From NCBI GenBank assembly GCA_003332265.1, contig QPGA01000002.1:77150-141149 (forward strand): a stretch of 64,000 nucleotides of DNA, in the 5' to 3' direction. Source of the stretch: Candidatus Accumulibacter meliphilus (GTDB taxonomy: Bacteria > Pseudomonadota > Gammaproteobacteria > Burkholderiales > Rhodocyclaceae). The notes below the pieces were generated by a model. The model had not been told where the DNA came from and searched no databases. It worked only from the letters and a program-made list of their open reading frames with translations. Of this stretch, positions 42,220 to 60,148 are shown one piece after another. How positions within the stretch are numbered: the first letter of the stretch is position 1; each line of letters begins with the position of its first letter. A program made the translations under genes and the position numbers.

Positions 42220-44370
42220 GTGAATGAATTCAGCGCGGTAAACACAGCGCTCCAGGATCTGCAGCCGGTACTGCAGCGGCTGGACAACCTGTTGCAAGCG
42301 GCAGTCGCGGCGGCTCAGTCTGCGTATGGTGCTGAGGCTGCCGCCGATCCCTACCGAGGGCTGTACATCGGCTCTGCCGAGGTGGAGAAGTTGCTGGCGC
42401 GCCGACCCGGTGTGCCGGTGTTGAAGAATGCGGCGCAGAACCTCCCTCTTTCTAAGCCACTGGGCGAACAGTCGCGCTTGCGGTCTCTGAAAAAGGCATT
42501 CCGGCTGTCGTCGTTCGAGCTGGATATGATTCTGGTCGCTCTGGCACCGGAAATTGACCTCCGGTACGAACGGCTCTACGCGTATCTGCAGGACGATGTG
42601 ACTCGTCGTCGGCCGAGTGTCGATCTGGTCTTCAATCTGCTCTGTACCTCGGCCGAGGACAAGCTTGCAAAGTGCAGCCATCTGGCGGCTACGGCCCCGC
42701 TGCGCTGCCACGGTCTGCTTTCCCTGATTGTCGATCCTCAGCAGGTTCACCCTTCGCTATTGGCGCGACAACTCCTGCTTGATGAAGATATCAGCGCATA
42801 CCTGTTGGCCCAAGACACCCTCGATGCCCGCCTGACGTCGTTCTGTGAATGGGCAGACTCGTCTGCCACTCTGGCGGACCTGCCCATCGGCGCCGAGCTC
42901 AAGCAGGTGTTACCGGGTTTGGTCGTGCAGGCAAAGGGAACGCAGCGGCCGCTGAGGCTCTACTTTCAGGGACCAAGAGGGGTCGGTAAACGGAGGGTTG
43001 CCGAGGCGCTGGCGGGTCTGATCAAGGCGCCGCTGTTGGTTGCCAATCTGGCACGCGCGCCGATTGCCGTCGACGACTTCGAAACGGCGGTGACAGTCCT
43101 GCTACGCACCGTGCTCCTCCGGGAGGGCATGCTGTACTGCACCGGTCTTGACGCACTGCTGGTTGCCGAGCGCTCGCGGCAGTATGAAGACCTACTGAAT
43201 AGACTGCAGAGGCATGCAGGCATGGTTGTTCTGGCGGGGTCCCGGGTCTGGCGACCGCCCTTCGATCACGTTCTCGCGATCCAGGCCGTTCCATTTCCAG
43301 CGCTTGACTACCCCCAGCGACGGGCCTGCCTGGAGGCGGCTCTAGCGGCTGCTGACAGCGCACTACCGGCAGGTGAGCTGGATGAGCTGGCGGCACGCCT
43401 CCAATTGAAGCCTGACGAGATTGCCAGAACAGTTGCCGGCGCTGTCGATCTGGCTCGTTGGCGTGTTGAGCAGACGGCTAACAGAGGCGCGGCCGTGCAC
43501 AGCACCCAGCCGACCCTGCTCGAATTGTTTGCCGCTGCCCGCGCGCAAACGGACCATCACTTGCTGGACCTGGCCCGCAAAATAACGCCCAAGTACACGT
43601 GGGCCGACATCGTGCTGCCGGCTGATGAGCTGGCGCAGTTGAACGAAATCTGCCAACAGGCCAAGAACCGGAATATCGTCTATGGCCAATGGGGCTTCGA
43701 CCGCAAGCTCGCTCTCGGCAAGGGGCTCAACGTCCTGTTCTCTGGCCCGCCGGGCACAGGCAAAACGATGGCTGGCGATGTGATCGCCAATGAACTATGT
43801 TTAACACTCTACAAGATCGATTTGTCACAAGTGGTAAGCAAATATATCGGCGAGACGGAGAAGAACCTGGAACGTATTTTCACCGCTGCCCAGAGCACCA
43901 ATGCCATCCTCTTCTTCGATGAAGCCGATGCCTTGTTCGGAAAACGTTCTGAGGTCAAAGATGCGCATGACCGCTACGCGAATATCGAAGTGGGCTACTT
44001 GTTGCAGAAAATGGAAGAATACGAAGGTGTTGCCATCCTGGCGACCAATCTACGCAGTCACATGGATGATGCCTTCGTCCGGCGAATGCATGCTATCGTC
44101 GAGTTTCCGTTTCCGGACGAGATGCACCGTCGACGTATCTGGGAAGTCCTGTTTCCGCCGGAGGCGCCACTCGGTGAGGATGTGGATTTCTGGAGCCTGG
44201 CTCGTGAGGTCAGGTTGGCTGGCGGAAATATCAAGACGATCGTGTTGACGGCCGCATTTTATGCGGCCGCTGAAGGGTCTCGCATTGGAATGGCACATCT
44301 CTTGCTCGCGGCACGACGCGAGTATCAGAAGATGGGGCGTACGTGGGATGAAGGGACGCGAAATAGGTAG
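42220..44370 (+). CDS. eCIS AAA+ ATPase with N-terminal winged-helix-like and degenerate ATPase regions
   Basis: About 716 residues. An N-terminal helical part (DLQPVLQRLDNLLQAA; LGEQSRLRSLKKAFRLSSFE) leads to a degenerate P-loop (YFQGPRGVGKRRVAEALAG) around residue 248. The full AAA+ domain follows: GPPGTGKTMAGDVIA, KYIGETEKNLERIF, ILFFDEADALFGKR and AFVRRMHAIVEFPFP. It is the layout of ATPases that open many eCIS loci. GTG 42220 is preferred since the protein then starts NEFSAVNTALQ; ATG 42151 is an alternative with an unrelated leader. Its C-terminal domain resembles the ATPase at 686-2068. It probably remodels or loads injection-system components. Confidence 0.85.
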   Translation: MNEFSAVNTALQDLQPVLQRLDNLLQAAVAAAQSAYGAEAAADPYRGLYIGSAEVEKLLARRPGVPVLKNAAQNLPLSKPLGEQSRLRSLKKAFRLSSFELDMILVALAPEIDLRYERLYAYLQDDVTRRRPSVDLVFNLLCTSAEDKLAKCSHLAATAPLRCHGLLSLIVDPQQVHPSLLARQLLLDEDISAYLLAQDTLDARLTSFCEWADSSATLADLPIGAELKQVLPGLVVQAKGTQRPLRLYFQGPRGVGKRRVAEALAGLIKAPLLVANLARAPIAVDDFETAVTVLLRTVLLREGMLYCTGLDALLVAERSRQYEDLLNRLQRHAGMVVLAGSRVWRPPFDHVLAIQAVPFPALDYPQRRACLEAALAAADSALPAGELDELAARLQLKPDEIARTVAGAVDLARWRVEQTANRGAAVHSTQPTLLELFAAARAQTDHHLLDLARKITPKYTWADIVLPADELAQLNEICQQAKNRNIVYGQWGFDRKLALGKGLNVLFSGPPGTGKTMAGDVIANELCLTLYKIDLSQVVSKYIGETEKNLERIFTAAQSTNAILFFDEADALFGKRSEVKDAHDRYANIEVGYLLQKMEEYEGVAILATNLRSHMDDAFVRRMHAIVEFPFPDEMHRRRIWEVLFPPEAPLGEDVDFWSLAREVRLAGGNIKTIVLTAAFYAAAEGSRIGMAHLLLAARREYQKMGRTWDEGTRNR

Positions 44371-44397
44371 GTAAGGCGTGTTGTCGGGAGGCCTGCA

Positions 44398-46026
44398 ATG
44401 AGGACTAGGGCTGTTATCGAAGCAAATATGGAAAATGTGACGGCGGCGCAGGCAAGGCAGCTTCCCCCGCAAGCCGGCCGGGTGCCAAAGCCATTGAGCG
44501 CGAGCGCTATTCTGAAGAATCTCCAGCGTACTCACGGAAACCGATTTGTGCAGAGGTTTCTGGCGAAGGGCTATGAGACCGATGGTGCGTTTGCAGTTGC
44601 TCCGGAAACGGAAAAAGCCATCCAGCGTGCGCGTGGCCATGGTCAGAATCTTGATAGCGGAATACGCGCTCAAATGGAGGGAAGCTTCGGCGCCAATTTC
44701 AGCTGCGTGCAGGTACACACCAGTGCCGAAGCCGATTCCCTAGCACAAGCGCTCGGCGCTCGCGCTTTTACCACCGGGAAAGACATTTTCTTCAGCCACG
44801 GGGAGTACAAGCCGACGAGCTGGGCGGGGCGGGAGCTCTTGGCGCATGAACTGACCCATGTTCTGCAACAAGGCAGCCATACCATCCAGGGCAAGCTTAC
44901 TGTCAGTCAAGCAGACGATCGCTACGAGCAAGAAGCGGATCGGTGTGCGCGCGCAGTAATGGAGCAGGAAGAGCAGACCGGATCGGACAGCCTGCGTCAA
45001 GCTCCGGTCTCCGGCGACAACCTTCCTGCAATTACCTCCGATACTGCGCCGCAACTGCAACGCTTGAGCGTGCCGTTAAGGGGTTGGGGTGACGTTCTGC
45101 AATATTTTGATGACTCCAGCATGGAATTAGCTGTCAAAGCCTCGCTGTGGGTCGCTGGACGCAGAATTGTCGAGCGCAATTTTTCCAACACCCAGAGGGA
45201 AAGTATTTCCATCCCGTTAAACACCGATGCTCATCTGCAAATCGCCGGCTCCGTCACTGTTAAGCGGGACAACCCCGTAATCAACGACACCAATTTATGG
45301 GAGATTGATTACCAGTGGCGTGTTTCGGTTGGCGAACGCGGTGCGCTAACAGTAAATGCGCCAACTATCAGCTTCTCGGGCGGCTCCCGCGATGCTCCCT
45401 GGTCGCTCAGCGCCATGCCGGTCCAGGGCGGCAGTAGTGTGGGATTGGCGCTAAGGCTGGGCTCAACAGAATCTACGAGTAGTGGCAAAGAGGTCTCGGT
45501 GCAACTTGGAGGTGGCAATGCCAGCGCTGGATACGCGCGCAGTTGGGGAACGTCTGCCGGCTCGACTCTGACGGCCGAACGCGCATTAGTAGTCGACATT
45601 GAAACGCCCGCACCTCCTCCCGAGATTGTCGTCGGTCCAATCACGGTTGGCGATCGCCGAGCTTACTACTTCAACACGGGTCAGGCCATACCGGGGACAA
45701 ATCCATCGACGCAAGAAGACGAGAATGTTCGCCTGACCTCTTTTCTCAGAAGTCTCGATACGCGTGGTGACGGGGGCAGTAATCTATCCGGTTTCGTTGA
45801 CGGCTATGCAAGCCCTCGTGGAGGCGTAGAACGCAATCGGGATCTGGCCAGAGCGCGCGCCGATTACATCCTGAGCAGAATCAGAGATACCTTGCCGCGC
45901 GCCGGTTTTTCCGTGCGTGTGTACGGCGAAGACATATGGCGGGGGCAGGGCGTACCGAATGTCGATGATAGCGAGAAGCATAGAGTCGTTGTTCTGGATA
46001 TTCGGCGAACTATCGCTGCGGAGTGA
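44398..46026 (+). CDS. DUF4157 (eCIS-core) protein with HExxH motif and C-terminal OmpA-like domain
   Basis: A 542-residue protein. A leader (1-~75) has LQRTHGNRFVQRFL, common in eCIS-linked cargo. The DUF4157 domain (about 85-190) has LDSGIRAQMEGSFGANFSCV, VHTSAEADSLAQALGARAFT, the putative zinc motif LLAHELTHVLQQG and a downstream YEQEADRCARAVM Glu. A beta-rich middle follows. A C-terminal OmpA-like region has YFNTGQAIPG, LSGFVDGYASPRGGVERNRDLA and ARADYILSRIRD. DUF4157 proteins are known as a common eCIS-associated cargo family. GGGAGG precedes ATG 44398. It lies between ATPase and structural genes, as expected for a delivered or loading protein. Whether it is a protease is unproven. Confidence 0.82.
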   Translation: MRTRAVIEANMENVTAAQARQLPPQAGRVPKPLSASAILKNLQRTHGNRFVQRFLAKGYETDGAFAVAPETEKAIQRARGHGQNLDSGIRAQMEGSFGANFSCVQVHTSAEADSLAQALGARAFTTGKDIFFSHGEYKPTSWAGRELLAHELTHVLQQGSHTIQGKLTVSQADDRYEQEADRCARAVMEQEEQTGSDSLRQAPVSGDNLPAITSDTAPQLQRLSVPLRGWGDVLQYFDDSSMELAVKASLWVAGRRIVERNFSNTQRESISIPLNTDAHLQIAGSVTVKRDNPVINDTNLWEIDYQWRVSVGERGALTVNAPTISFSGGSRDAPWSLSAMPVQGGSSVGLALRLGSTESTSSGKEVSVQLGGGNASAGYARSWGTSAGSTLTAERALVVDIETPAPPPEIVVGPITVGDRRAYYFNTGQAIPGTNPSTQEDENVRLTSFLRSLDTRGDGGSNLSGFVDGYASPRGGVERNRDLARARADYILSRIRDTLPRAGFSVRVYGEDIWRGQGVPNVDDSEKHRVVVLDIRRTIAAE

Positions 46027-46043
46027 ATGGAGCGTGTTGAAGC

Positions 46044-46898
46044 ATGATCCGCGACCTGAGTCTGACCCTGCGAGCCCTGCTGCGCGATCCCTCGCTGGCA
46101 AGCGTAGTCCCCGAACTCGCTGCGGCTCAGATCGTTTTCGACCGGCCGTCGGAGCAGTTCAGCCCGGCTCAGACAACGATTGACATGTTCTTGTACGACA
46201 TTCGGGAAAACATCGAAATGCGCAGCAGCGAGCCGCTACTTGAACGCCAGAATGGCCAAGCAGTCATCCATCCGCCTCCACTGCGGGTCGCCTGTAGCTA
46301 TCTGATCACCGCTTGGCCGGTTGGTGGTGCCGAGCTACCGCTGCAGGAACACCGCTTGCTGAGCCAGACGCTGCAAGTGCTGTCCCTCTATCCGATGCTG
46401 CCGGCAGCGTCCCTGCAAGGAAGTCTGGTCGGGCAACAACCGCCTTTGCCGATGCTTACCGCGCAAGCCGACGGTTTGAAAGATCCGGCGGATTTCTGGG
46501 CGGCCATCGGCAACAAATTGCGTCCCGCGATCACCATCACGGCGACCCTGGCGATGGACAGGTTCGCACCAATCACGGCGCCTCTGGTGATCACCGAGCA
46601 GGTCGTTCTCGGCGAGCGGACAAGCGCCACGGAAGAAGATCTCAACCCGGCCACCCGGCAAAACCTCTTGCGCTTCGGCGGGACGGTTACGGACGCCACC
46701 GATCTGCCTGTGGCAAACGCCAGGGTGACGCTGCTCGATAGTGGTTTCGAGACGCGGACTGACGCGGCGGGCCGCTATACGCTGACCGTACCGGAGCCGG
46801 GCATATTTGACTTGACCGTACAGGCCGGCGCAAGTGCTCGCAGCATCCGTATCACCGTTCCTGCCACCGCTGGAAGCCACTACGACGTGCAACTTTAG
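46044..46898 (+). CDS. DUF4255 tail-terminator/cap protein (Afp16-like) with Ig-like extension
   Basis: A 284-residue protein. Residues ~1-190 are DUF4255-like, with MIRDLSLTLRALLRDPSL, ADGLKDPADFWAAIGNKLRP and the FDRPSEQFSPAQTTIDMFLYDIREN region (given in part). This family caps the eCIS tube and is called Afp16-like. A C-terminal carboxypeptidase-regulatory/Cna-B-like domain (about 205-284: FGGTVTDATDLPVANARVTL, TDAAGRYTLTVPEPG) is an addition often seen in this family. It lies 17 bp after the DUF4157 gene and 29 bp before the first sheath gene. Confidence 0.85.
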   Translation: MIRDLSLTLRALLRDPSLASVVPELAAAQIVFDRPSEQFSPAQTTIDMFLYDIRENIEMRSSEPLLERQNGQAVIHPPPLRVACSYLITAWPVGGAELPLQEHRLLSQTLQVLSLYPMLPAASLQGSLVGQQPPLPMLTAQADGLKDPADFWAAIGNKLRPAITITATLAMDRFAPITAPLVITEQVVLGERTSATEEDLNPATRQNLLRFGGTVTDATDLPVANARVTLLDSGFETRTDAAGRYTLTVPEPGIFDLTVQAGASARSIRITVPATAGSHYDVQL

Positions 46899-46927
46899 GC
46901 TACCCAAACCGCTAAGGAGTAAGGCGT

Positions 46928-48187
46928 ATGTCTCAGTATCTATCACCCGGTGTCCATGTTGAAGAAGTGCCCTCGGCGATCAAGGCCATCGCCGGGGTGA
47001 GCACCAGCACGGCGGCTTTCATCGGCGTCGTGCCAGACACAATTTATCAGGTGGCCAAGGACCCGGAGGCGGCGCCGGGAATGACCAAGTTCGTAGACTT
47101 CAGTTTGCCGACAGCGGCCGGAACGCCCATGCTGATCACCAGCTGGACGCAATTCACCAGGGCTTTCGGCGATCTGATCGGCAGCGAGGCGGCAGCAGCC
47201 ACTGCAGACCCCAGCCCGGCGATCGACGCGGGTCATCAGCATCTCGCGCATGCGGTCTATGGCTTCTTCAACAACGGCGGTAGCCGCTGCTACGTGGTTC
47301 GGATTCTCGCCGCGGCCGACCTTGATAATGCCCTCAAGGCTTTTGCGGCAATCGATGAAATCGCCCTTGTTGCGGCGCCCGGTCTCACCGATGAGGCAAG
47401 CCGTGACAAGCTGGTGACGCACTGCGTCAGCACATCCGACCGGTTTGCGATCCTCGATGGACCCGAGAGCGTCAGCGATTTGACGACGCTGACGCGGATT
47501 GCCGCGGACGCCAATCCGGGTGTGATGCCCAGGAAGACCGATTACGCCGCCTGGTATTTCCCGTGGATCAGGGTTTTCGATCCGGCCACCAAGATGCAGT
47601 CCGCTGCCGGCGATGGCGCGATCGCCGTCCCGCCCAGCGGTCACCTGGCGGGAATCTACGCGCGGGTGGACAACCTGCGGGGGGTGCACAAAGCCCCGGG
47701 CAACGAAGCGATCTTCGGCGCGCTGGATGTCACGCAAGCTCTGAGCAAGGCCGAGCAGGACGGCTTGAATCCGAAAGGGGTCAATTGCATTCGCGTGCTC
47801 AACGACAATATTCTTGTCTGGGGAGCGCGGACCGTTGGCGGTGACGCCAACGCCGATTTGAAGTACATCAACGTGCGCCGTACCTTGCTGTTTCTCCGCG
47901 AGTCGATCGATGAAGGTCTGCAATGGGCGGTGTTCGAGCCAAACACGCCCGCACTGTGGCAGAAAATCAACCGCAACGTGACCGCCTTTCTCACCAACGT
48001 GTGGCGTTCCGGCGCGCTCTTCGGCAGCACGCCGCAGGAGGCTTTCTACGTCAGATGCGATGCCGAAACCAACCCGCCTGAATTGCGTGAGTTGGGCCAG
48101 GTGGTGACCGAGATCGGAGTATCGATCGTGCGGCCGGCGGAGTTCGTGATCTTCCGCATCAGCCAGTTCGTGGCCTCCACAAAGTAA
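46928..48187 (+). CDS. eCIS tail sheath protein 1
   Basis: A 419-residue contractile sheath protein. It opens SQYLSPGVHVEEVPSAIKAI, the N-terminal strand that links neighbouring subunits. It has AVYGFFNNGGSRCYVVRILA, GVHKAPGNEAI and GVNCIRVLNDNILVWGARTV. The C-terminal segment VVTEIGVSIVRPAEFVIFRI closes the handshake fold. A strong AAGGAG site precedes ATG 46928. It is followed after 12 bp by a shorter second sheath gene; two sheath paralogues are usual in Afp/PVC-type loci. Confidence 0.95.
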   Translation: MSQYLSPGVHVEEVPSAIKAIAGVSTSTAAFIGVVPDTIYQVAKDPEAAPGMTKFVDFSLPTAAGTPMLITSWTQFTRAFGDLIGSEAAAATADPSPAIDAGHQHLAHAVYGFFNNGGSRCYVVRILAAADLDNALKAFAAIDEIALVAAPGLTDEASRDKLVTHCVSTSDRFAILDGPESVSDLTTLTRIAADANPGVMPRKTDYAAWYFPWIRVFDPATKMQSAAGDGAIAVPPSGHLAGIYARVDNLRGVHKAPGNEAIFGALDVTQALSKAEQDGLNPKGVNCIRVLNDNILVWGARTVGGDANADLKYINVRRTLLFLRESIDEGLQWAVFEPNTPALWQKINRNVTAFLTNVWRSGALFGSTPQEAFYVRCDAETNPPELRELGQVVTEIGVSIVRPAEFVIFRISQFVASTK

Positions 48188-48199
48188 GCGCGTCCGACG

Positions 48200-49339
48200 G
48201 TGGCCAACTACCAGATTCCTGGCGTTTTTCGCCAGGACATCTTTCTCCGACCGGCAACTGGCTTGCCGACCGGCATCCCCGGTTTTGTCGGTTTGGCGGC
48301 GCTCCCCGGTCAGTCTTCTGCGACTCCGGTTCTGTTGCATCGCAAGGAGGAGCTGGTCAGCGCATTGCCCATCCCCTCCGAGAGCTATCTCGGCGCAGCG
48401 ATCACCGGCTTCTTCGAAAACGGTGGTAGCCGCTGTTATGTCGCACTTGGCGATCCCGCCGCCGGTCGGCCGGCTGCCCTGAAGGCGGCACTCGCCACGC
48501 TGGGACCACTGCGCGACCTCGATCTGGTCGCGATGCCGGACGCCGTACGGCCGGTCGACAGCACAGCCATCGACCCGGAAGAAATCAAGGACCTTCAACA
48601 AGCGCTGCTGCGGCACTGCGCGGAGCATGGCGATCGCCTGGCGATTCTCGATGCGCCGCGCAACAGTTCGCCGGACAGTGTGCTTGCGCAGCGCAAACGG
48701 CTCACTCAAGGACAGGCGGAACCGCTCAACGGAGCTTTGTACTACCCCTGGCTGCAGACAGCTCGTGAGCAATGGGTTCCACCCTGCGGCCATGTGGCCG
48801 GGATTTTTGCGCGAACGGATGCCCGGGGCGGAGTGTTCAAGGCGCCGGCCAACGAGGAAGTGCGCGATGCCCTGGATCTGGAAGTCGCGATTGACAATTC
48901 GTTGCAGGATCTCCTCAACCCGGAGGGCGTTAATTGCCTGCGTGCATTTCCGGGGCGCGGCATCCGCGTTTGGGGCGCGCGCACGCTGAACCGCGATCCT
49001 GCCTGGCGCTATATCAATGTCCGGCGGCTGTTCCTGACTGTCGGTCGCTGGGTCGACCGGAACATGAGCTGGGTGGCTTTCGAGCCGAATGATTCCGGTT
49101 TATGGCTACGAATTCAGCGTGAGTTGAATCCGTATCTGACCGGCTTGTGGCGGGCCGGCGCCTTGCAGGGAAAAACGCCGGCCGAAGGGTTCTACGTAAA
49201 ATGCGATGCCGACACCAATCCACCGGGGACTCGCGAGCCAGGAGAGGTGGTTACCGAAATTGGTCTGGCTGCCAGTGCGCCGGCTGAATTCGTCGTGGTG
49301 CGCATCATGCACCGGGCGGGTACAACGGCCACGGTCTGA
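48200..49339 (+). CDS. eCIS tail sheath protein 2
   Basis: A 379-residue paralogue of sheath 1, opening ANYQIPGVFRQDIFLRP and ending with REPGEVVTEIGLAASAPAEFVVV. It shares GFFENGGSRCYVALGDP, GGVFKAPANEEV, GVNCLRAFPGRGIRVWGART and the final strand pattern. It lacks part of the variable domain of sheath 1, so it is likely a baseplate-proximal or distal sheath ring, as for Afp3/Afp4. It starts with GTG and has no obvious Shine-Dalgarno, suggesting coupling to sheath 1. Confidence 0.92.
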   Translation: MANYQIPGVFRQDIFLRPATGLPTGIPGFVGLAALPGQSSATPVLLHRKEELVSALPIPSESYLGAAITGFFENGGSRCYVALGDPAAGRPAALKAALATLGPLRDLDLVAMPDAVRPVDSTAIDPEEIKDLQQALLRHCAEHGDRLAILDAPRNSSPDSVLAQRKRLTQGQAEPLNGALYYPWLQTAREQWVPPCGHVAGIFARTDARGGVFKAPANEEVRDALDLEVAIDNSLQDLLNPEGVNCLRAFPGRGIRVWGARTLNRDPAWRYINVRRLFLTVGRWVDRNMSWVAFEPNDSGLWLRIQRELNPYLTGLWRAGALQGKTPAEGFYVKCDADTNPPGTREPGEVVTEIGLAASAPAEFVVVRIMHRAGTTATV

Positions 49340-49399
49340 CTTGCCAGATCAAATGAGAGCTTGTCTGCCTTTTCACCGAACATAATCGAAGGAGCTTCC

Positions 49400-49834
49400 A
49401 TGCCTACCGGAACACGTACCGATCCCTATCGGGGCTTCAATTTCATGGTCGAAATCGATGGCATTACCCAGGCCGGCTTTCAGGAATGTGGCGGCCTGGA
49501 CGTGAGTACCGATCCCGTCGACTATCGTGAGGGGACCGATCCGCTGCATGTCCGCAAGCTGACCGGCCTGAACAAATACACCCTCGTTACGCTCAAGCGC
49601 GGCATTACCGATTCGGACGAACTGTGGAAGTGGCGCCAGACGGTCACCGACGGCAAAGCCGAACGAAGGAACGGCTCGATCATTCTGCTGGACGACACCG
49701 GAGCCGAGAAGCTGCGCTGGAATTTCGTCAATGCCTGGCCCTCGAAGTGGACCGGCCCGGCGTTCAACTCGACGAATAACGCGGTTGCCATTGAGGCGCT
49801 GGAAATCACGCACGAGGAGTTGAAGCGCGCCTAG
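49400..49834 (+). CDS. eCIS inner tube protein
   Basis: A 144-residue phage-tail-tube-like (gp19/Hcp-like) protein with TRTDPYRGFNFMVEIDGITQ, GFQECGGLDVSTDPVDYREG, WKWRQTVTDGKAERRNGSI and NAWPSKWTGPAFNSTNNAVA. It polymerises inside the sheath to form the cargo-carrying tube. The family opening follows an AAGGAG site closely, which fixes ATG 49400. About 140 bp without a supported gene follow before the tail assembly gene. Confidence 0.95.
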   Translation: MPTGTRTDPYRGFNFMVEIDGITQAGFQECGGLDVSTDPVDYREGTDPLHVRKLTGLNKYTLVTLKRGITDSDELWKWRQTVTDGKAERRNGSIILLDDTGAEKLRWNFVNAWPSKWTGPAFNSTNNAVAIEALEITHEELKRA

Positions 49835-49975
49835 GAAGCTATTGCGCTATTCCGGGTCCGACGCGGCTGCTTTTCAGGCCGGGGAGGGCGGCGATGTGGA
49901 CGCGCAGTGCGTCGCATGGAGAGTCTGCCACGCCGTCCGTAGCTACGATCGATTCTCGCTGAGACAGGAAAGAAG

Positions 49976-50353
49976 ATGTTGCAGACCGAATTCCCGTTCA
50001 CCCTGCCGATGGGCTATATCGACAGCGAAGGCAATCTGCATCAGGAAGGTGTGATGCGTCTGGCCACGGCTTTTGACGAAATCACACCGCTCAAGGATCC
50101 GCGGGTGCACAACAACCCGGCCTATCTGCTGATCATCCTGTTGTCACGGGTTATCACCCGCCTGGGAAGCCTCGAGCAAATCAATCCCAAGATCGTCGAG
50201 GGTTTTTTTGCCGCCGATCTTGGGTATTTACAGGATCTCTATCGTCGCCTCAACGACAGCGGTAGCAACCGGGTGCATACCCAGTGCCCGTACTGTGAGA
50301 AGGAATTCGAAGTGGAGTTGAGTGACCCGGGGGAGTCTGGCGCTACCCCATAG
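49976..50353 (+). CDS. eCIS tail assembly protein (frame-0 product; carries -1 frameshift site)
   Basis: A 125-residue protein with TEFPFTLPMGYIDSEGNLHQ, GVMRLATAFDEI, DPRVHNNPAYLLIILLSRVI and a C-terminal Cys pair (TQCPYCEKEF). It is the eCIS counterpart of phage tail assembly chaperone G. The TAG stop at 50351-50353 follows a tail VELSDPGESGATP. Near the 3' end the frame-0 codons gac-ccg-ggg-gag contain C-CCG-GGG at 50326-50332, a -1 slippery heptamer. Slipping there would replace the tail by GGVWRYPIERLYEEV and extend the protein to 50505. AGGAAAGAAG precedes ATG 49976. Confidence 0.85.
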   Translation: MLQTEFPFTLPMGYIDSEGNLHQEGVMRLATAFDEITPLKDPRVHNNPAYLLIILLSRVITRLGSLEQINPKIVEGFFAADLGYLQDLYRRLNDSGSNRVHTQCPYCEKEFEVELSDPGESGATP

Positions 50354-50376
50354 AGCGGCTCTATGAAGAGGTAGCG
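50326..50376 (+). promoter_or_regulatory. Programmed -1 ribosomal frameshift signal
   Basis: The slippery heptamer CCCGGGG (50326-50332) is in the X_XXY_YYZ register of the tail assembly gene. An 8-nt spacer (50333-50340) follows. Then comes a nested perfect stem-loop: outer stem cgctacc (50341-50347) with ggtagcg (50370-50376), inner stem catagag (50349-50355) with ctctatg (50359-50365), and loop cgg. The frame-0 stop lies inside the inner stem. Seen directly in sequence; function is inferred from the lambda G/GT analogy. Confidence 0.75.
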
Positions 50377-50505
50377 TACATCGGATTTCATTTTCACTGG
50401 CCGCAGCAAGAGATCATGGATTTCGATCATCTGGAACGGCGCCGCTGGGTGTTGGAGATTGCCAGGATCAATCGGCGTTTGAACGAGCAGTCCGAGACCG
50501 GGTAA
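50326..50505 (+). CDS. DUF6760-like extension, expressed only by -1 frameshift from the tail assembly gene
   Basis: In the -1 frame, codons from 50326 encode PGGVWRYPIERLYEEV, then AYIGFHFHWPQQEIMDF and HLERRRWVLEIARINRRLNE, ending at TAA 50503-50505: 59 sense codons. This matches the small eCIS protein family I know as DUF6760 (pattern YPLERLYEEVAFI...HFHW...RRRWVEEIARIN). A TGA at 50323-50325 closes the frame just upstream. The first in-frame ATG/GTG/TTG is ATG 50416, after the conserved core. Independent initiation therefore cannot yield the family's full product. It should be the C-terminal half of a G-T-like fusion, and is easily missed by gene callers. Confidence 0.78.
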   Translation, partial: PGGVWRYPIERLYEEVAYIGFHFHWPQQEIMDFDHLERRRWVLEIARINRRLNEQSETG

Positions 50506-50520
50506 CGAGGAGCAAGCGAT

Positions 50521-51075
50521 ATGCCTGAACTGGGTTTGAACACCGCCTTCAGTGCGGCGAGCAACTTGTCGGGGGTGCGTGTCGATCCCTACCAGGCCTT
50601 CAATTTCCTCGTGGAGATCGAAGGGATTCTGGCCGGAGGCTTTTCGGAATGCAGTGGCCTGCAAGTGGAAACCGAAACGTTCGAGTACCGCGAAGGCGGC
50701 GTCAATGAGTACATGCACCGTTTTGCCGGACCGACCAGGTATCCACCGCTGCTGCTCAAACACGGCCTGACGCCAATCGACGGACTCTGGGGCTGGCATC
50801 AGGATGTCGTACAAGGCAGGATCAAACGCCGGAACGGCACCATCTACCTGCTGAACAAGCAGCGTATCCCGGTCATCTGGTGGAACTTCAGGGAGGCCTT
50901 CCCCTTCCGCTGGAGCGGGCCCTCGCTGGTGGCACATTCGGATCAGGTCGCCATTGAAAGCGTGGAACTCGCCCACCGAGGGCTCAGCCGGCCGAGACTG
51001 GCAAACGCCTTGGCTGGCGTCGTCGCCGAGCGCATTAGTGGCGGTTCGCTGACCGTTTCCGGGGGGCTTTTCTGA
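50521..51075 (+). CDS. Second eCIS tube-type protein (Afp5-like)
   Basis: A 184-residue tube-family protein: VRVDPYQAFNFLVEIEGILA, GGFSECSGLQVETETFEYRE, GVNEYMHRFAGPTRYP, WHQDVVQGRIKRRNGTI and WWNFREAFPFRWSGPS. It is longer than the main tube protein, with a C-terminal tail from about residue 150. In Afp-type systems the paralogue joins the tube to the spike/baseplate hub. It begins 15 bp after the frameshifted extension ends, and GAGGAG lies just upstream. Confidence 0.9.
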   Translation: MPELGLNTAFSAASNLSGVRVDPYQAFNFLVEIEGILAGGFSECSGLQVETETFEYREGGVNEYMHRFAGPTRYPPLLLKHGLTPIDGLWGWHQDVVQGRIKRRNGTIYLLNKQRIPVIWWNFREAFPFRWSGPSLVAHSDQVAIESVELAHRGLSRPRLANALAGVVAERISGGSLTVSGGLF

Positions 51076-51165
51076 TGCCTGTTCGGGCAATGACTGCGGA
51101 AAATCCATTGGCACCAGGACGGCTGCCCGACAGTCGCTACAAGCCAGCAGCGAGGAGAACTCGGG

Positions 51166-52959
51166 ATGATTGACGTGCGCTGGCCGCAGCAGCGTTACAC
51201 CCGTGCTGTTGGCTGGGTCGGGCGGCGCCTTCCATTGCTACAGCGCTTGCTGGCGCGCAACGCCGACGGCGAGAGGCGGCCAATCGAAGGTGGCACTTTC
51301 GTTTACCGGACGGTACGCGCTGCACCGCGCAAAGTACCGAAAACCCATGTCCCGGCGGAGGCGCGCCTGCCAGCGACCTACCTCGCCCGGTCGATTCCGT
51401 TACCCTCCGTAGGAGGCGCTGGAAACGACCGGCCTACATCAGTGCCAAGCGTTCACGCAGCCGCTACCGGGTTCGATTCGAGCGTAAGGCCGCTGGCACT
51501 GGCGCGATCTACCGCCGTCGCACGGCCAGCCGAGCCGACCACGGTAGTTAGCGCTCATCGTGGTGGCGCAGATGATGCCGACACAGCTTCCGCTATTCCC
51601 CGTTCAGCCCTTGGCGCCAAGTCAACGGGCGCGGGCCCGGCGACAAGCGCTGCTCTTCGGCATGATGTACTGCCGTCGTCACGCCCATTTCCTCACGATA
51701 GGTTGCTTCCTGCCGACCCTTCTTCACCAGGCAGTAGTACGGCGACCGCCAGCGTGTTTCCCCGGCGTCTGGCACTGCGCGCGAGCAGCCCGCCTGGGGT
51801 AATCGATTTGCAGCGGTCAGCCCAGCACTACAGCCGTGCCGCCGGCTGGAGCGATTCATCGCTGCCATTGTTGAGCCGCCTGCTGAACCGTGGTCGTTCT
51901 GACAGCGATCTCGGGACTGGCGTCAGGGGTGGACGGGTGGCCGCTGCTGAGTCGTCGGCCAGGCCGGATAGCGTGACCATCGTGAGTGCCTTCGTTCCGC
52001 CGGCCGACCATGTTCTCTCGCTTGCCGCCAGTGTCGCGCCTGGGGAAGCACAGCAGTGGCAGGCAGGCGGCTCGCCTTCTCTGCTTCGGGTGACGGCGAC
52101 GGAGCCGCGAGGGGCCAGTGCTACCGTTGCCCGCTTTGCCGATCACCGGTCATCGGCAGCGCCGGAGACAGAATCCCCGGTCCAAGCGCCGCCGGTCCTG
52201 CGTGTCAGGCGGCGGGCAGTGCCGTCGGCGGACGCGGGCTCGATTCTGGCGGGAGAGGCAACGATACGGACCAAGCCGGTAGAGAGTACTCGCCAGAGTC
52301 CTGGTCATGCAGCCGAGGCGGGGGCGTTGGCTGCTGTCGTCTTCGGGAAAGCCCCCGCGAATCGGCGGGCGCCGACGGTATTGCCCGTTGCGCCAGCACC
52401 GCAGCCGCTGCTCCGCCGCAAGGCAATCGCTTCGTCCGCTTCGTCCTTGTCCTCCAGGGGTGAATTGCTTGCTGCGGCGATCACCGTCGGCGCTCCCGCG
52501 CCGACCGCCACCTTTGCCGTTCCCGAGGCAAGGCCGCCGGGGCGGTCGACTGGTTCCATGCGGCCGCCTGCAACGACATCGGAGAAGGTCGTCACCCAGC
52601 TCCTTCCCGTGATCCCGCAAAGAACGGCGCTAGCGTCAGCGGCTGCCAGCGCGCTTCCCGGTCTTGTCCTGCAAAGAAAAGGGTCTGCTTCGGCAGTGGC
52701 CCCGGCCGGCAATCGGGAAGCTCGCGCCGCGACGACAAGGACGGCGGTAGGCACGCATCACCCGGCACACGACGGCCCGCTTGCGCCCGGGGATAGCCGG
52801 CCGGCGAAGAGCCAGCCCGGAGCTCCTCGGGTCAACGGCAACACTCTTCCAGCGGCGGTGGCACTGGACTGGGAGCAACTGACTGCCGAGGTCAGCCGCC
52901 GCCTCCTGCGCCATATGAGCATCGAGCGCGAACGTCGAGGATGGAAACAATGGAATTAG
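51166..52959 (+). CDS. Large low-complexity eCIS protein, unknown function
   Basis: A 597-residue Ala/Pro/Ser/Arg-rich protein, mostly predicted disordered. A motif occurs twice: near residues 7-30 (QQRYTRAVGWVGRRLPLLQR) and near 217-243 (QHYSRAAGWSDSSLPLLSRL). A short C-terminal helix (LTAEVSRRLLRHMSIERERR) is ordered, and proteins at this position in other eCIS loci often end in a similar Arg-rich helix. GAGGAG precedes ATG 51166, so the start is well supported. It overlaps the LysM gene start by 10 bp. It lies between the Afp5-like and Afp7-like genes. A flexible linker, an adaptor or a cargo-related role is possible; none is shown. Confidence 0.7.
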   Translation: MIDVRWPQQRYTRAVGWVGRRLPLLQRLLARNADGERRPIEGGTFVYRTVRAAPRKVPKTHVPAEARLPATYLARSIPLPSVGGAGNDRPTSVPSVHAAATGFDSSVRPLALARSTAVARPAEPTTVVSAHRGGADDADTASAIPRSALGAKSTGAGPATSAALRHDVLPSSRPFPHDRLLPADPSSPGSSTATASVFPRRLALRASSPPGVIDLQRSAQHYSRAAGWSDSSLPLLSRLLNRGRSDSDLGTGVRGGRVAAAESSARPDSVTIVSAFVPPADHVLSLAASVAPGEAQQWQAGGSPSLLRVTATEPRGASATVARFADHRSSAAPETESPVQAPPVLRVRRRAVPSADAGSILAGEATIRTKPVESTRQSPGHAAEAGALAAVVFGKAPANRRAPTVLPVAPAPQPLLRRKAIASSASSLSSRGELLAAAITVGAPAPTATFAVPEARPPGRSTGSMRPPATTSEKVVTQLLPVIPQRTALASAAASALPGLVLQRKGSASAVAPAGNREARAATTRTAVGTHHPAHDGPLAPGDSRPAKSQPGAPRVNGNTLPAAVALDWEQLTAEVSRRLLRHMSIERERRGWKQWN

Positions 52960-53639
52960 CCAAGATCGAAGTCACGCCGCTCGACAACCGCGGTGGCCGC
53001 GTGGAAGGTAAGAAGTTCAAGGTGCTTTTCAATCCGAATAGCTACTCGATCACCAAGACCGTGGCGTGGAATTCCATCGGCTCGTCCGGTCCAGCCATCA
53101 CTCGCACCAACGGCAAGGTCAATGCACCGACCCTGTTCTTCGCCGGCGGCGGCAGCCGCTTGCTCAACCTCGAGCTGTTCTACGACGTCACCGAGCCGGT
53201 CAACGACGTCGCCAGCGATGACGTGCGCAAGGAAACCAACAAGGTCGTCGAACTGACGCGTATCCAGAAGGATCTGCAGCGCCCCCCGGCGGTCGAAATC
53301 GCCTGGGGCGCGGCGCCCCCGGCGCGTTCCGATTTTCCCTTTACCGGCGTAGTCAGCAACCTCGTCCAGCGCTTCACCCTTTTCAGCAGCGACGGCAGGC
53401 CCTTGCGCGCGACACTGACGATCACGGTCACCGAGTTCCTCGACCCGGTACTGGATCAGAGACAGACCGACCCCGAATTTACGACTCGCCGAATCAAGCG
53501 TGGCGACACCCTGAGCGCTATCGCCGCCGAGAACTATCGCGACCCGAGCCTGTGGCGAGTGATCGCCGAGGCCAATCAGCTGGACGATCCGCGCGATCTG
53601 CGCATCGGCCGGACGCTGACGATTCCGAAGCGCGGCTAG
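52950..53639 (+). CDS. LysM-containing baseplate hub protein (Afp7-like)
   Basis: A 229-residue protein. The N-terminal part (KFKVLFNPNSYSITKTVAWN; LNLELFYDVTEPVNDV) is the hub domain of gp53/Afp7-type proteins. A C-terminal LysM domain (about 180-228) has RRIKRGDTLSAIAAENYRDP and LRIGRTLTIPK. LysM here is a structural module that clamps the baseplate and tube. ATG 52950 is preferred to 52941 because GAGG at 52937-52940 is then 9 bp away. The start lies inside the end of the low-complexity gene. Confidence 0.9.
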   Translation: MELAKIEVTPLDNRGGRVEGKKFKVLFNPNSYSITKTVAWNSIGSSGPAITRTNGKVNAPTLFFAGGGSRLLNLELFYDVTEPVNDVASDDVRKETNKVVELTRIQKDLQRPPAVEIAWGAAPPARSDFPFTGVVSNLVQRFTLFSSDGRPLRATLTITVTEFLDPVLDQRQTDPEFTTRRIKRGDTLSAIAAENYRDPSLWRVIAEANQLDDPRDLRIGRTLTIPKRG

Positions 53640-53652
53640 GGGGAAACTGTCG

Positions 53653-54726
53653 ATGTCTGCCGCCACGCCGCGTAGCCCACTGGTTCCCGATTTCCAGATC
53701 GCGATCAACGGATCCCCCCTGTCCAAAGCGCTTGCGGTGCATGTCATCGCCGTCGAGGTCGACGACAGCGTCGAGCTGCCGAGCATGTTCGCCATCGAGC
53801 TCGCCGGATCGGAAAACGACGCACAGATCCTCGGCTGGATCGACGATCAGAAGTTGTTCGCCGTCGGGCAGGCGGTCGAAGTCTCGCTCGGTTATGTCGA
53901 CGATCTGGCCAGCCTGATCAAGGGCGAAATCACCGCGCTGGAACCCGAGTTTGCCGTCGACCGCTTGCCGCACGTGACGGTGCGTGGTTATGACCGCCGT
54001 CATCGACTGCAGCGGGGTTGCCAGGTGCGCACTTTCGTGCAGCAGAAAGACAGCGATATCGCCGCGCAAATCGCTCGTGAAGCCGGTTTGACCGCGCACA
54101 CCGACGACAGTCGTGTGGTCCATGAGTACGTCCTGCAGGCCAAGCAGAGCGATCTCGATTTTCTTCAGGAGCGCGCTCGGCTGATCGAATACGAGGTCCG
54201 CGTCGACGACCAGACGCTGTCTTTCCGGGCGGTCGCCAATGCCGCGAGTGAAATCATGACCCTGACCCTGAACGATGAGTTGCTGGAGTTCTATCCGCGC
54301 CTTTCTTTGGCTGGCCAGGTCAGCGAAGTTCAGGTGCGCGGCTGGAACGTCAGAGACAAGCAAGCGATCATCGCCCAGGCCCGGGTCGGCGCCGAAGTGT
54401 CCAGCATGGGTGGTCAGCAGAGTGGCGCGGCGCTGGCCAGGCGTGCCTTCGGCGCGGCGGTGGGAGTGCTCGACCGGCACCCGCCAGCGACCCAGGCCGA
54501 AGCTGACCAACTGGCCAAAGCACGCTTCAATCGTGCTGTCCTGGAACTGATCGAAGGCGAAGGTGCGTGCTTGGGTCGAACCGACTTGCGCGCCGGCAAG
54601 GTGATCAAGATCGCCGGGCTGGGGTCTCGCTTCAGCGGCCAATACTATGTCGTCTCTGCAACTCATGGCTATACATCACAACAGGGCTATCTGACCCGCT
54701 TCACCGTTCGGAGGAACGCGACGTGA
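53653..54726 (+). CDS. gpD-like spike hub protein (Afp8 N-terminal part)
   Basis: A 357-residue homologue of phage late-control protein D, the hub that holds the spike: PRSPLVPDFQIAINGSPLSK, VSLGYVDDLASLIKGEITALE, VRGYDRRHRLQRG and AREAGLTAHTDDSRVVHEYV. The C-terminal FSGQYYVVSATHGYTSQQGY is typical. Its stop overlaps the GTG of the gpV-like spike gene (GTGA). In VgrG proteins these two genes are fused, so this pair is the split form of a VgrG. Confidence 0.92.
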   Translation: MSAATPRSPLVPDFQIAINGSPLSKALAVHVIAVEVDDSVELPSMFAIELAGSENDAQILGWIDDQKLFAVGQAVEVSLGYVDDLASLIKGEITALEPEFAVDRLPHVTVRGYDRRHRLQRGCQVRTFVQQKDSDIAAQIAREAGLTAHTDDSRVVHEYVLQAKQSDLDFLQERARLIEYEVRVDDQTLSFRAVANAASEIMTLTLNDELLEFYPRLSLAGQVSEVQVRGWNVRDKQAIIAQARVGAEVSSMGGQQSGAALARRAFGAAVGVLDRHPPATQAEADQLAKARFNRAVLELIEGEGACLGRTDLRAGKVIKIAGLGSRFSGQYYVVSATHGYTSQQGYLTRFTVRRNAT

Positions 54727-55358
54727 GCTTCTTCAACCTGCTCGTCGAACGCGACGACACGGCGCGCATCAGCGGCGTCGTCGTCGGCGTGGTGACCAAC
54801 AACCAGGACCCTGAGGGCCTGGCGCGGGTCAAGGTCCGCTTCCCCTGGCTGAGCGCCGAGGATGAGAGTGCGTGGGCCCGGATGGCGACGCCGATGGCCG
54901 GAAACGATCGCGGCCTGTACTTTCTGCCCGAAGTGGACGACGAGGTCCTGGTCGCCTTCGAGCACGGCGACCTGCGCTTTCCCTATGTCCTCGGCGCTCT
55001 CTGGAACGGCAAGGACAAATCCCCCGCCGACAACGCCGACGGCAAGAATGCCTTGCGCGTGATCCGCTCGCGCAGTGGCCATCTCATTCGCCTGAATGAC
55101 GAGGACGGCGAGGAGAAGATCGAAATCATCGACAAGAGCGAGAAGAACAGCATCGTCTTCGATACCGCCAACAACACCATCACCATCAGCAGCGACAAGG
55201 ACATCAGCTTGTCGGCGCCGCAGGGCACGATCAGGCTCGACGCCCGGAAGGTGGAAATCAAATCGTCGACCGATGCCCAATTCGAGGCCGGAGCAGGCCT
55301 CGACGTGAAAGCCGGCGCGACGCTGAATATCAAGGGCGCTACCGTCAATATCAACTGA
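54723..55358 (+). CDS. gpV-like spike protein (baseplate assembly protein V)
   Basis: A 211-residue protein. An OB-fold-like start (ISGVVVGVVTNNQDPEGLAR; VKVRFPWLSAEDESAWAR) is followed by LPEVDDEVLVAFEHGDLRFP and FPYVLGALWNGKDKSP, classical in VgrG/gp5. The C-terminal repetitive beta-helix (NTITISSDKDISLSAPQGTI; VKAGATLNIKGATVNIN) forms the piercing spike. The GTG start at 54723 overlaps the gpD gene by 4 bp; an upstream frame to 54567 lies wholly inside gpD and is not used. A PAAR tip gene follows 3 bp later. Confidence 0.92.
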   Translation: MSFFNLLVERDDTARISGVVVGVVTNNQDPEGLARVKVRFPWLSAEDESAWARMATPMAGNDRGLYFLPEVDDEVLVAFEHGDLRFPYVLGALWNGKDKSPADNADGKNALRVIRSRSGHLIRLNDEDGEEKIEIIDKSEKNSIVFDTANNTITISSDKDISLSAPQGTIRLDARKVEIKSSTDAQFEAGAGLDVKAGATLNIKGATVNIN

Positions 55359-55361
55359 GCC

Positions 55362-55760
55362 ATGGGCCAAGCCGCCGCCAAGCAGGGCGATCAGATCATC
55401 GCCACCGACACCCATATCGTCATGGTCCCGGGACCAGGCTCACCCGTGCCGACGCCCTTGCCGCATCCCTTCAGCGGCATCATCAACGGCAATCTGAGCG
55501 GCAACGTCAATATCCTGGGAAAACCGGCGGCAACGGTCGATAGCACGGCCGAGAACACGCCAGCGCACCTGCCGACGCCGCCCGGGATGAGCTTCCAGAA
55601 GCCGCCGGCCAACAAGGCGACGATCAGGATCGGCAGTGCGACGGTGAAGATCAACGGCAAGTTTGCGGCGCGCAACGGTGACACGGCGAGTACCTGCAAC
55701 GACCCGGCGGATCTGCCGGTGGGCCAGGTGATTGCCGTCGGCACGGTGTTCATCGGTTAG
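55362..55760 (+). CDS. PAAR-like spike tip protein (Afp10-like)
   Basis: A 132-residue PAAR/DUF4150-like protein: AKQGDQIIATDTHIVMVPGP, VPTPLPHPFSGIINGNLSGN, VNILGKPAATVDSTAENTPAH and ARNGDTASTCNDPADLPVG. The His/Cys residues fit a metal-stabilised sharp tip capping the spike. It lies directly after the spike gene (3 bp), 8 bp before the gp25 gene. Confidence 0.9.
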   Translation: MGQAAAKQGDQIIATDTHIVMVPGPGSPVPTPLPHPFSGIINGNLSGNVNILGKPAATVDSTAENTPAHLPTPPGMSFQKPPANKATIRIGSATVKINGKFAARNGDTASTCNDPADLPVGQVIAVGTVFIG

Positions 55761-55768
55761 GAGGACTG

Positions 55769-56164
55769 ATGTCGAAATCCTTTCTCGGCGTTGGCTGGGG
55801 ATTCCCGGTGCAGCTCGATGACCAGGGTTTTTTCAAGCTGGCCGAGTACGAGGAGAGTGTTCGCCAGTCGATCTGGATCATCCTCGGCACCGCCAAGGGC
55901 GAGCGCGTGATGCGTCCTGATTTCGGCTGCGGCATTTACGAACTGGTCTTCGAGATCAACAGTCCTTCCACGGCCGGCAAAGTGGCGCAGGCCGTTCGCC
56001 AGGCCTTGCTGCTCTTCGAGCCGCGCATCGACGTGCTCGACATCGCGGTGCACGCGACCGACGGCGGTGAGGTCCTGCTGATCGAAATCGACTATCAGGT
56101 CCGCGCCACCAACAACGCCTTCAACCTGGTGTACCCCTTCTATCTCGAGAGGAGTTCGGCCTGA
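55769..56164 (+). CDS. gp25-like baseplate wedge protein (Afp9-like)
   Basis: A 131-residue GPW/gp25 family protein with SKSFLGVGWGFPVQLDDQGF, EESVRQSIWIILGTAKGERV, MRPDFGCGIYELVFE and LLFEPRIDVLDIAVHATDGG. The EPR motif and the GERVMRPDFG segment are family hallmarks. It is the inner baseplate wedge, needed for sheath initiation. A GGAGG site precedes ATG 55769. Its stop overlaps the next gene's ATG (TGATG). Confidence 0.95.
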   Translation: MSKSFLGVGWGFPVQLDDQGFFKLAEYEESVRQSIWIILGTAKGERVMRPDFGCGIYELVFEINSPSTAGKVAQAVRQALLLFEPRIDVLDIAVHATDGGEVLLIEIDYQVRATNNAFNLVYPFYLERSSA

Positions 56165-59238: not shown

Positions 59239-59243
59239 TTGCC

Positions 59244-60137: not shown

Positions 60138-60148
60138 GAGAAGCGACG

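What the first reader, a model, noticed from the sequence alone, without database searches (positions are those of the whole stretch)
50326..50505. Programmed -1 frameshift (lambda G/GT-like) in an eCIS tail assembly gene
Seen directly: the heptamer CCCGGGG in the X_XXY_YYZ register of the 125-codon gene, 8 nt before a nested perfect stem-loop (7-bp outer stem, 7-bp inner stem, cgg loop), with the frame-0 stop inside the hairpin. The -1 frame is closed by TGA at 50323 and then open to 50505. It has no start codon before its conserved core RYPIERLYEEV...FHFHW, so independent translation cannot make this family-like product. Known: lambda and many tailed phages use a -1 slip between tail assembly genes G and T to make a rare GT fusion. 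I know of no description of this in eCIS. If general, many eCIS annotations lack or mis-start this small protein.
Basis: partly seen in the sequence, partly recalled or inferred. Interest (0 to 1): 0.87.

Follow-up and report, generated by a model that had tools for sequence, protein, structure and literature searches.

The report
Conserved ribosomal frameshift in bacterial injectors
Genes for phage-tail-like injection machines in bacteria and archaea appear to make two versions of an assembly helper protein by a built-in ribosome slip, as tailed phages do, so a small protein domain that gene finders can miss or mis-start is probably made as a fusion.

Summary
Gene A (49976-50353, tail assembly chaperone) ends in frame 0; DUF6760 (B) lies in frame -1 with no start codon back to its upstream stop. 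The locus is a true eCIS. Of 214 junction rows from bacteria and archaea, 210 have A ending at the junction at this offset. After dereplication (139), 133 have a slip-type heptamer there, mostly G_GGG_GAR or G_GGG_GGN (two of the 133 doubtful). A hairpin follows, usually 6 nt later, far more stable than synonymous recoding predicts (mean z -3.3), with covariation and unusual codons. 69 of 139 have no ATG/GTG/TTG between slip and core. All 6 representatives without slip have a start codon and weak hairpins; one has left frame -1. Distant relatives use TTTTTTG/A or GGGAAAG. A same-genus gene carries an A-type and a B-like domain in one frame. B is homologous to phage P2 E', annotated as a frameshift extension. 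Caveats: no frameshift was measured; RNAalifold did not choose the stem; half the loci also carry a possible start codon. No description in eCIS was found in the library searched.

The parts
49976..50353 (+). Gene A: tail assembly chaperone, short isoform (TAC-N like), 125 aa, with a CPYC zinc-ribbon-like stretch near its end
   Evidence: PHROG 508 tail assembly chaperone E 1.4e-4, 43 of 44 scanned homologues hit it at E up to 1, best 1.9e-9; AF2 pLDDT 83.8, fold matches phage proteins named T4-like baseplate hub assembly (E 7e-6, 7e-5) and, weakly, Mu FS-gp41 (E 0.022)
50329..50335 (+). Conserved slippery heptamer G_GGG_GAG (P-site GGG, A-site GAG)
   Evidence: Slip-type heptamer in register in 133 of 139 representatives: GGGGGAA 62, GGGGGAG 23, GGGGGGG 23, GGGGGGA 13, others 12; 129 of 139 have one within the last 13 codons of A, 4.4% expected
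50326..50332 (+).
   Evidence: CCCGGGG in register in 7 of 139, in six of them followed at once by the G run
50323..50325 (+). TGA closing frame B just upstream of the slip
50341..50376 (+). Predicted stimulatory hairpin: outer stem 50341-50347/50370-50376, inner stem 50349-50355/50359-50365; 5 nt after G_GGG_GAG
50351..50353 (+). Frame-0 stop TAG of gene A, inside the hairpin
50326..50505 (+). Frame B (-1): DUF6760 extension, C-terminal part of the predicted 176-aa fusion (119 codons of A plus 57 of B, counted from coordinates)
   Evidence: PF20546 55.5 bits, cut-off 27; no start codon; 33 of 91 relatives hit PF06528 Phage_P2_GpE at E up to 10, best 2.9e-4; hhalign against P2 E' probability 92.8
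49361..49834 (+). Tail tube protein (Phage_T4_gp19) upstream
50521..51075 (+). Second tail tube protein (Phage_T4_gp19) downstream
42151..60805 (+). eCIS gene cluster: AAA ATPase, eCIS_core, Pvc16_N, two sheaths, two gp19 tubes, CIS_tube/LysM, GPD, base V, PAAR, gp25, Baseplate_J x2, Tail_P2_I

Best explanation
[quoted passage not shown] Most ribosomes translate A (125 aa) and stop at TAG 50351. A minority, slowed by the hairpin at 50341-50376, slip back one base on G_GGG_GAG and continue into frame B, giving a 176-aa A-B fusion whose C-terminal domain is DUF6760. By analogy with lambda G/GT and P2 E/E+E', the two isoforms together probably chaperone the tape measure or tube start during assembly. 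Shown here: reading frames, conserved slip, conserved hairpin, lack of a start codon, homology to P2 E'. Inferred: that slippage occurs, its efficiency, and the chaperone role.
For: An A-profile hit ends at the junction in frame -1 in 210 of 214 rows (209 plainly, L140 in its last part); the others are L134 (A in B's own frame, behind a stop), L077 (A broken), L108 and L132 (no A hit). Slip in the last 13 codons of A: 129 of 139, 4.4% expected. Hairpin z against synonymous recoding: mean -3.30 over 139, 123 below -1.5; in a first set of 77 it was -3.54 with control stretches -0.55 to -0.83. Codons: stem Val is GTA in 60 of 76, against 0 of 19 Val at the next such site; Tyr TAC:TAT 69:5 against 33:40 at the second Tyr. 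Covariation score 0.132 against 0.079 shuffled, 0 of 500 as high; 90.2% of cells paired, 26-67% when slid. Spacer heptamer to GCTACC 6 nt in 93 of 97 that hold GCTACC. No canonical start between slip and core in 69 of 139, none back to the frame-B stop in 47 of 139. The 6 slip-less representatives all have a start (Fisher p 0.028) and weak hairpins (mean z -0.86 against -3.41, p 1.3e-5). In a distant set 10 of 12 loci have TTTTTTG/A, AAATTTT or GGGAAAG in register, 0 of 1272 background codons. L002 has GGGAAAG. L015, same genus, holds a T4_baseplate domain (E 1.8e-7) and a DUF6760-like C-terminus (19.7 bits, below the cut-off 27; own B profile E 2.5e-8) in one frame. B is homologous to P2 E', annotated as -1 frameshift product in P2, PSP3 and KL3. 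PRFect reports GGGGGAA as the only 'fivetwo' motif of SEA-PHAGES frameshift genes (PMC10885494, passages).
Against: No translation data. G_GGG_GAR is not a perfect X_XXY_YYZ site; the A-site tRNA must accept a G:U re-pairing. RNAalifold did not pick the stem on A2. In one search two measures were not extreme (pairs with double changes 21 of 500, further pair types 137 of 500) and slides +1 and +3 score 0.110 and 0.108. Seven slip-bearing loci have hairpin z above -1, L002, L018, L021, L023, L025, L182, L218, and so does L132. 64 of 133 slip-bearing representatives have ATG/GTG/TTG between slip and core and 60 more a near-cognate codon; 9 have neither. L035 has no start and no credible slip. 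A does not match the P2 E profile. L249 and L250 have no XXXYYYZ. Some P2-like records list E' as a separate CDS. Sequences are related, so counts are not independent.
Confidence: 0.9

Rival explanations
1. Translational coupling: ribosomes ending A re-start on B at the codon overlapping A's stop (NTG or NTA) or at a near-cognate codon, using the G run as a Shine-Dalgarno sequence, so B is a separate small protein.
For: -1 is also the relation given by ATGA/GTGA overlaps; 70 of 139 have ATG/GTG/TTG near the junction; several Streptomyces-type loci have GTGA; six representatives have a start and no slip; RefSeq lists B as a gene, starting at TTG, ATT or CTG in three records (read with 37); some P2-like records list E' separately.
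Against: The window and 46 other representatives have no start back to the frame-B stop; B's overlap codon is NTA in 84 and NTG in 55 of 139, simply following A's stop (TAG 54, TAA 30, TGA 55); the G run lies 0-4 nt from that codon in the loci I read, too close for an SD (inference); hairpins are kept in start-less loci and weak where a start stands without slip; L015 shows the two domains in one chain.
Confidence: 0.06
2. RNA polymerase slippage on the G run inserts or drops bases so that some mRNAs encode the fusion in one frame.
For: The junction is a run of 5-8 G in most loci.
Against: GGGGGAA and GGGGGAG, with only 5 G, make up 85 of 139; GGGAAAG, GGGAAAT and T runs replace it; a hairpin at ribosomal spacing is conserved.
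Confidence: 0.02
3. The hairpin serves another purpose (mRNA stability, termination of A, or hiding an SD-like AGGAGGT in its 3' arm) and B is made by another route.
For: The 3' arm often reads GAGGAGGTAGC, an SD-like sequence.
Against: No start codon follows that arm at SD distance in the window; the hairpin is weak where the slip is absent.
Confidence: 0.02

Closest known systems
Phage P2 E / E+E' (Phage_TAC_7 PF10109 and Phage_P2_GpE PF06528)
   Same: Chaperone gene and -1 extension after the tube gene; E' carries the FHW motif homologous to DUF6760; the P2 record lists E' only as part of E+E'.
   Different: P2 slips on TTTTTTG (2679-2685 of L028); A and E profiles do not match, though 3 of 44 A members hit PF10109, best 5.1e-5; the tape measure gene follows directly in P2, a second tube gene here.
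Lambda G / GT (recalled, heptamer GGGAAAG recalled)
   Same: Two overlapping tail assembly frames, -1 slip, rare fusion. L002, L240 and L241 carry GGGAAAG at the junction.
   Different: Not compared by sequence here; lambda is a siphophage, this is an eCIS.
Actinobacteriophage tail assembly chaperones with slip GGGGGAA (PMC10885494, passages; PMC5506516, one passage on a corynephage)
   Same: Same heptamer as 62 of 139 representatives.
   Different: Here usually with a GCTACC/GGTAGC hairpin (93 of 139); phage chaperone genes were not aligned with A and B.
Phage Mu gp41 / FS-gp41 and T4-like baseplate hub assembly proteins (PF12322)
   Same: A's predicted fold matches both; A of the distant set (L240, L244) and L015 hit PF12322; 10 of 44 A members hit Gp41_Mu weakly, best 0.0095.
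   Different: Mu match is weak (E 0.022). The title of Vladimirov et al. 2022, seen only in reference lists, says T4-like phages use another mechanism than frameshifting.

Membership tests
Tail assembly chaperone pair made by -1 frameshift (lambda G/GT, P2 E/E+E') | Downstream frame overlaps the end of the upstream gene in frame -1 | tested here: met
   210 of 214 rows; exceptions L134 (same frame), L077 (A broken), L108 and L132 (no A hit)
Tail assembly chaperone pair made by -1 frameshift (lambda G/GT, P2 E/E+E') | In-register slippery heptamer near the end of the upstream gene | tested here: met
   129 of 139, 4.4% expected; mostly G_GGG_GAR, imperfect but documented
Tail assembly chaperone pair made by -1 frameshift (lambda G/GT, P2 E/E+E') | Downstream part cannot be started on its own | tested here: inconclusive
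   Met in the window; 69 of 139 lack a canonical start near the junction, 70 have one
Tail assembly chaperone pair made by -1 frameshift (lambda G/GT, P2 E/E+E') | Proteins homologous to known chaperone parts | tested here: met
   B to P2 E'; A to PHROG 508 in 43 of 44 scanned; A against the P2 E profile not met
Tail assembly chaperone pair made by -1 frameshift (lambda G/GT, P2 E/E+E') | Located between tube gene and tape measure gene | tested here: inconclusive
   After a tube gene; next gene is a second tube; tape measure not identified
Tail assembly chaperone pair made by -1 frameshift (lambda G/GT, P2 E/E+E') | Fusion protein is produced at low frequency | not testable with these tools
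   needs reporter or mass spectrometry
eCIS | eCIS_core, Pvc16_N, CIS_tube, sheath, gp25, Baseplate_J, AAA ATPase together | tested here: met
DUF6760 (PF20546) | Score above curated cut-off | tested here: met
   55.5 bits against 27

The most novel reading that the evidence does not exclude
A single -1 frameshift cassette (G run or other slip, about 6-nt spacer, hairpin) sets the ratio of two chaperone isoforms in eCIS of Bacteria and Archaea alike, including haloarchaeal-type loci with G_GGA_AAT. It is an ancient trait of the eCIS lineage shared with contractile phages. DUF6760 acts as the C-terminal domain of a fusion, except in a few lineages that replaced the slip by a start codon or by a direct gene fusion.
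Probability: 0.65. Interest if true: 0.82.

Novelty: new variant of a known kind. Interest (0 to 1): 0.78.

Why it matters
Frameshifted chaperones are common in phage tails, but I found no report of one in eCIS in the library searched. If real, many eCIS annotations lack a fusion protein, and reconstitution or heterologous expression that recodes these genes could lose it. It also gives a testable assembly factor, an RNA element seen in bacteria and archaea that no Rfam family matched in the window, and a nucleotide signature for finding eCIS loci.

Tried and rejected
Sequencing error or pseudogene: rejected, since the junction recurs in the same genus and elsewhere. CCCGGGG as the conserved slip: rejected, in register in 7 of 139, six of them followed at once by the G run. 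RNAalifold on A2 (76 of the 77 first representatives; L025 left out) gave another, near-zero-energy structure; the named stem was then tested directly and by a codon null. The stem and the stretch folded were chosen after viewing alignments, which favours them. A against P2 E by hhalign failed. PDB fold search of A gave nothing significant; YqbN 3klu has TM 0.49-0.51 at E 3.0. Tblastn of the window's B in phage records: none at E 0.01. NCBIfam: none. PDB by sequence, A only: none. A first DNA pattern had the wrong spacing, corrected.

Rows dropped before counts: L001 (same as L003) and five sub-threshold matches, L005-L008 and L015. L005 and L007 are frames of about 740 aa; L006 and L008 were read on the wrong strand and not looked at again. 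At least 13 of the 214 rows are re-fetches (L109-L120; L043 is the contig of L009). One search looked for A only in frame -1, so its 212 of 214 is circular; one search replaces it with an A profile in all frames. L132 (no A hit) and L134 (not -1) remain among the 139. In one search, L034, L153 and L192 were scored slip-less because the window hung on A's stop; hung it on the core and also admitted GGGG, which lets in L035 (GGGGCGT), not a credible slip; L132's slip is doubtful too. The genome-contig scan kept the 80 loci closest to a start-less query, which could favour this type; the phylum samples do not have that bias.

Full report
Check. A (49976-50353, 125 aa) ends at TAG 50351-50353. Frame -1 is closed by TGA 50323-50325, then open to TAA 50503-50505 and reads as DUF6760 (PF20546, 55.5 bits, cut-off 27) with no ATG/GTG/TTG before the core. 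The nested stems are at 50341-50347/50370-50376 and 50349-50355/50359-50365. The locus is an eCIS: AAA ATPase, eCIS_core, Pvc16_N, two sheaths, two gp19-type tubes, CIS_tube, gp25, Baseplate_J and Tail_P2_I. The genome is probably Candidatus Accumulibacter: same-genus contig G412:C65 and NZ_SPMY01000006.1 have the same length (128069) and junction.

Comparative set. Five sub-threshold rows were left out. This gave 214 rows, at least 13 of them re-fetches.

Frames. A profile built from 44 A proteins ends at the junction in frame -1 relative to B in 210 of 214 rows (209 plainly; L140 has an earlier frame change inside A). The rest are L134, where A lies in B's own frame behind a stop and B has GTG; L077, where A is broken; and L108 and L132 without A hit. 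43 of 44 scanned A proteins hit PHROG 508, tail assembly chaperone, at E up to 1, best 1.9e-9. In L015, from the window's genus, a 306-aa frame holds a T4_baseplate domain (PF12322, E 1.8e-7) and a DUF6760-like end (19.7 bits, below the cut-off of 27; E 2.5e-8 with my B profile) in one chain. This looks like a natural in-frame fusion of the PF12322 type of A with B.

Slip site. Of 139 representatives (under 85% identity), 133 have a slip-type heptamer in A's register near the core: GGGGGAA 62, GGGGGAG 23, GGGGGGG 23, GGGGGGA 13, others 12 (L035 and L132 among the 133 are doubtful). In the last 13 codons of A, 129 of 139 have XXXYYYZ or GGGGG, 4.4% expected from the rest of A. [quoted passage not shown] a corynephage paper names the same site in its tail assembly genes (PMC5506516, passage). 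In the window this is 50329-50335. CCCGGGG overlaps it, but CCC is absent in L009-L014.

Replacements. L002 has GGGAAAG. L179-L183, unnamed archaeal loci resembling Haloferax L025, have GGGAAAT in register, and L180, L181 and L183 have no start codon near the junction. The IMG/VR scan gave 22 loci, all with a frame of 75 aa or more at the A offset. Twelve (L240-L251) form a distant set; A of L240 and L244 hits PF12322, and L240, L244 and L246 have sheath and gp19 neighbours. Ten of the twelve carry TTTTTTG, TTTTTTA, AAATTTT or GGGAAAG in register, 0 of 1272 background codons. L240 and L241 are identical there, L242 and L243 82% alike, and L249 and L250 have no such heptamer.

Hairpin. Folding 48 nt after the slip against synonymous recoding with local codon use gave mean z -3.54 in 77 loci, with control stretches -0.66 (n 75), -0.83 (75) and -0.55 (77), and -3.30 in 139, 123 below -1.5. 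The share below -1.5 was 11 of 19 in Actinobacteria and 0 of 1 in Bacillota, higher in the other groups. Twelve loci have z above -1, some with a slip, such as L002, L018, L021 and L023. In 76 aligned junctions the stem Val is GTA in 60, while none of 19 Val codons at the next such site is; stem Tyr is TAC:TAT 69:5, the other Tyr 33:40; where the outer base is G the partner Ala ends in C in 38 of 40 (24 of 40 at a control Ala), where it is A in 1 of 22 (7 of 22 at the control). The named 7-bp stem has 90.2% paired cells (26-67% when slid) and covariation 0.132 against 0.079 in shuffles (0 of 500), but two other measures are unremarkable (21 and 137 of 500) and two slides score 0.11. RNAalifold alone did not choose it. 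The spacer from heptamer to GCTACC is 6 nt in 93 of the 97 that hold GCTACC.

Start codons. A's stop is TGA 55, TAG 54, TAA 30 of 139, so B's overlapping codon is NTA in 84. No ATG/GTG/TTG lies between slip and core in 69 of 139, of which 9 also lack CTG, ATT, ATC and ATA; 47 of 139 have no start back to the frame-B stop. The six representatives without slip (L100, L131, L133, L134, L136, L137) all have a start (Fisher p 0.028), and their hairpin z averages -0.86 against -3.41 (p 1.3e-5). Five come from the actinobacterial sample and may share ancestry. This joint loss is what a frameshift signal should show when a start codon takes over, and L134 has left frame -1. Annotation follows the difficulty: no B gene is listed in CP030123 (the plasmid gene table is incomplete), and in three other records B begins at TTG inside the core, ATT or CTG (read with 37).

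What A and B are. B hits Phage_P2_GpE (PF06528) in 33 of 91 members at E up to 10, best 2.9e-4, and aligns with a 9-sequence E' profile at probability 92.8, E 3.9e-7 for that single comparison. E' is annotated as made by -1 frameshift in P2, PSP3 and KL3; SEN8, AP3 and two others list a separate small CDS. A's model (pLDDT 83.8) matches phage proteins including T4-like baseplate hub assembly proteins (six matches at E up to 0.001) and more weakly Mu FS-gp41 (E 0.022); it does not match the P2 E profile. B is predicted as helices, pLDDT 90.1.

Mechanism. Best supported is a -1 slip on G_GGG_GAG giving A (125 aa) and a rarer A-B fusion (176 aa, counted from coordinates). Shown: frames, slip, hairpin, homology. 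Inferred: that it slips, how often, and that the fusion acts in assembly.

Literature. Searches for eCIS or contractile injection with frameshift or tail assembly terms, and for DUF6760, listed no paper that I recognised as reporting this (listings, with passages looked up in PMC8528098, PMC8718954 and PMC13222765). A GeneTack survey measured 6-7% frameshifting in phage tail chaperone genes related to HK97 (PMC3711429, passage). Pseudomonas phage Adele is argued to use the same logic (PMC12846349, passages). Vladimirov et al. 2022 on T4-like chaperones is not held and could mention eCIS. The library holds only open-licence papers.

Check of this report. 

Noticed in passing
L015 619-1626 (G423, same genus as the window): A frame with a T4_baseplate domain and a DUF6760-like C-terminus in one chain: a likely natural fusion of an A-type and a B-like part.
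   Followed up: partly
50366-50376 and most aligned junctions: The 3' arm of the hairpin commonly reads GAGGAGGTAGC, containing an SD-like AGGAGGT with no start codon behind it in the window; the Glu codon next to Val is GAG in 72 of 76.
   Followed up: partly
L240-L251: A distant set in IMG/VR contigs, with an A related to PF12322 where tested, mostly uses T-run slips (TTTTTTG, TTTTTTA) at the same junction.
   Followed up: partly
L179-L183, L025: Archaeal loci carry GGGAAAT or GGGAAAC in register some 16 nt before A's stop; some have ATG or GTG for B, others none.
   Followed up: partly
L134: A and B lie in the same frame separated by a stop, B with GTG, no slip and no hairpin (z -0.09).
   Followed up: partly
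L035 (Streptomyces flaveus): No start for B near the junction and no credible slip, yet hairpin z -2.1; possibly a decayed or different signal.
   Followed up: no
L077 (Brocadiaceae MAG) and L140: A is broken into pieces in different frames upstream of B.
   Followed up: no
49361-49834 and 50521-51075: Two Phage_T4_gp19 tube paralogues flank the A-B pair.
   Followed up: no
51166-52959: 597-aa Ala/Pro/Ser-rich protein without Pfam match between the second tube and CIS_tube genes.
   Followed up: no
sample: DUF6760 is far commoner in the myxococcal sample (71 of 168 genomes) than in the other phyla sampled; seven genomes have two matches.
   Followed up: no
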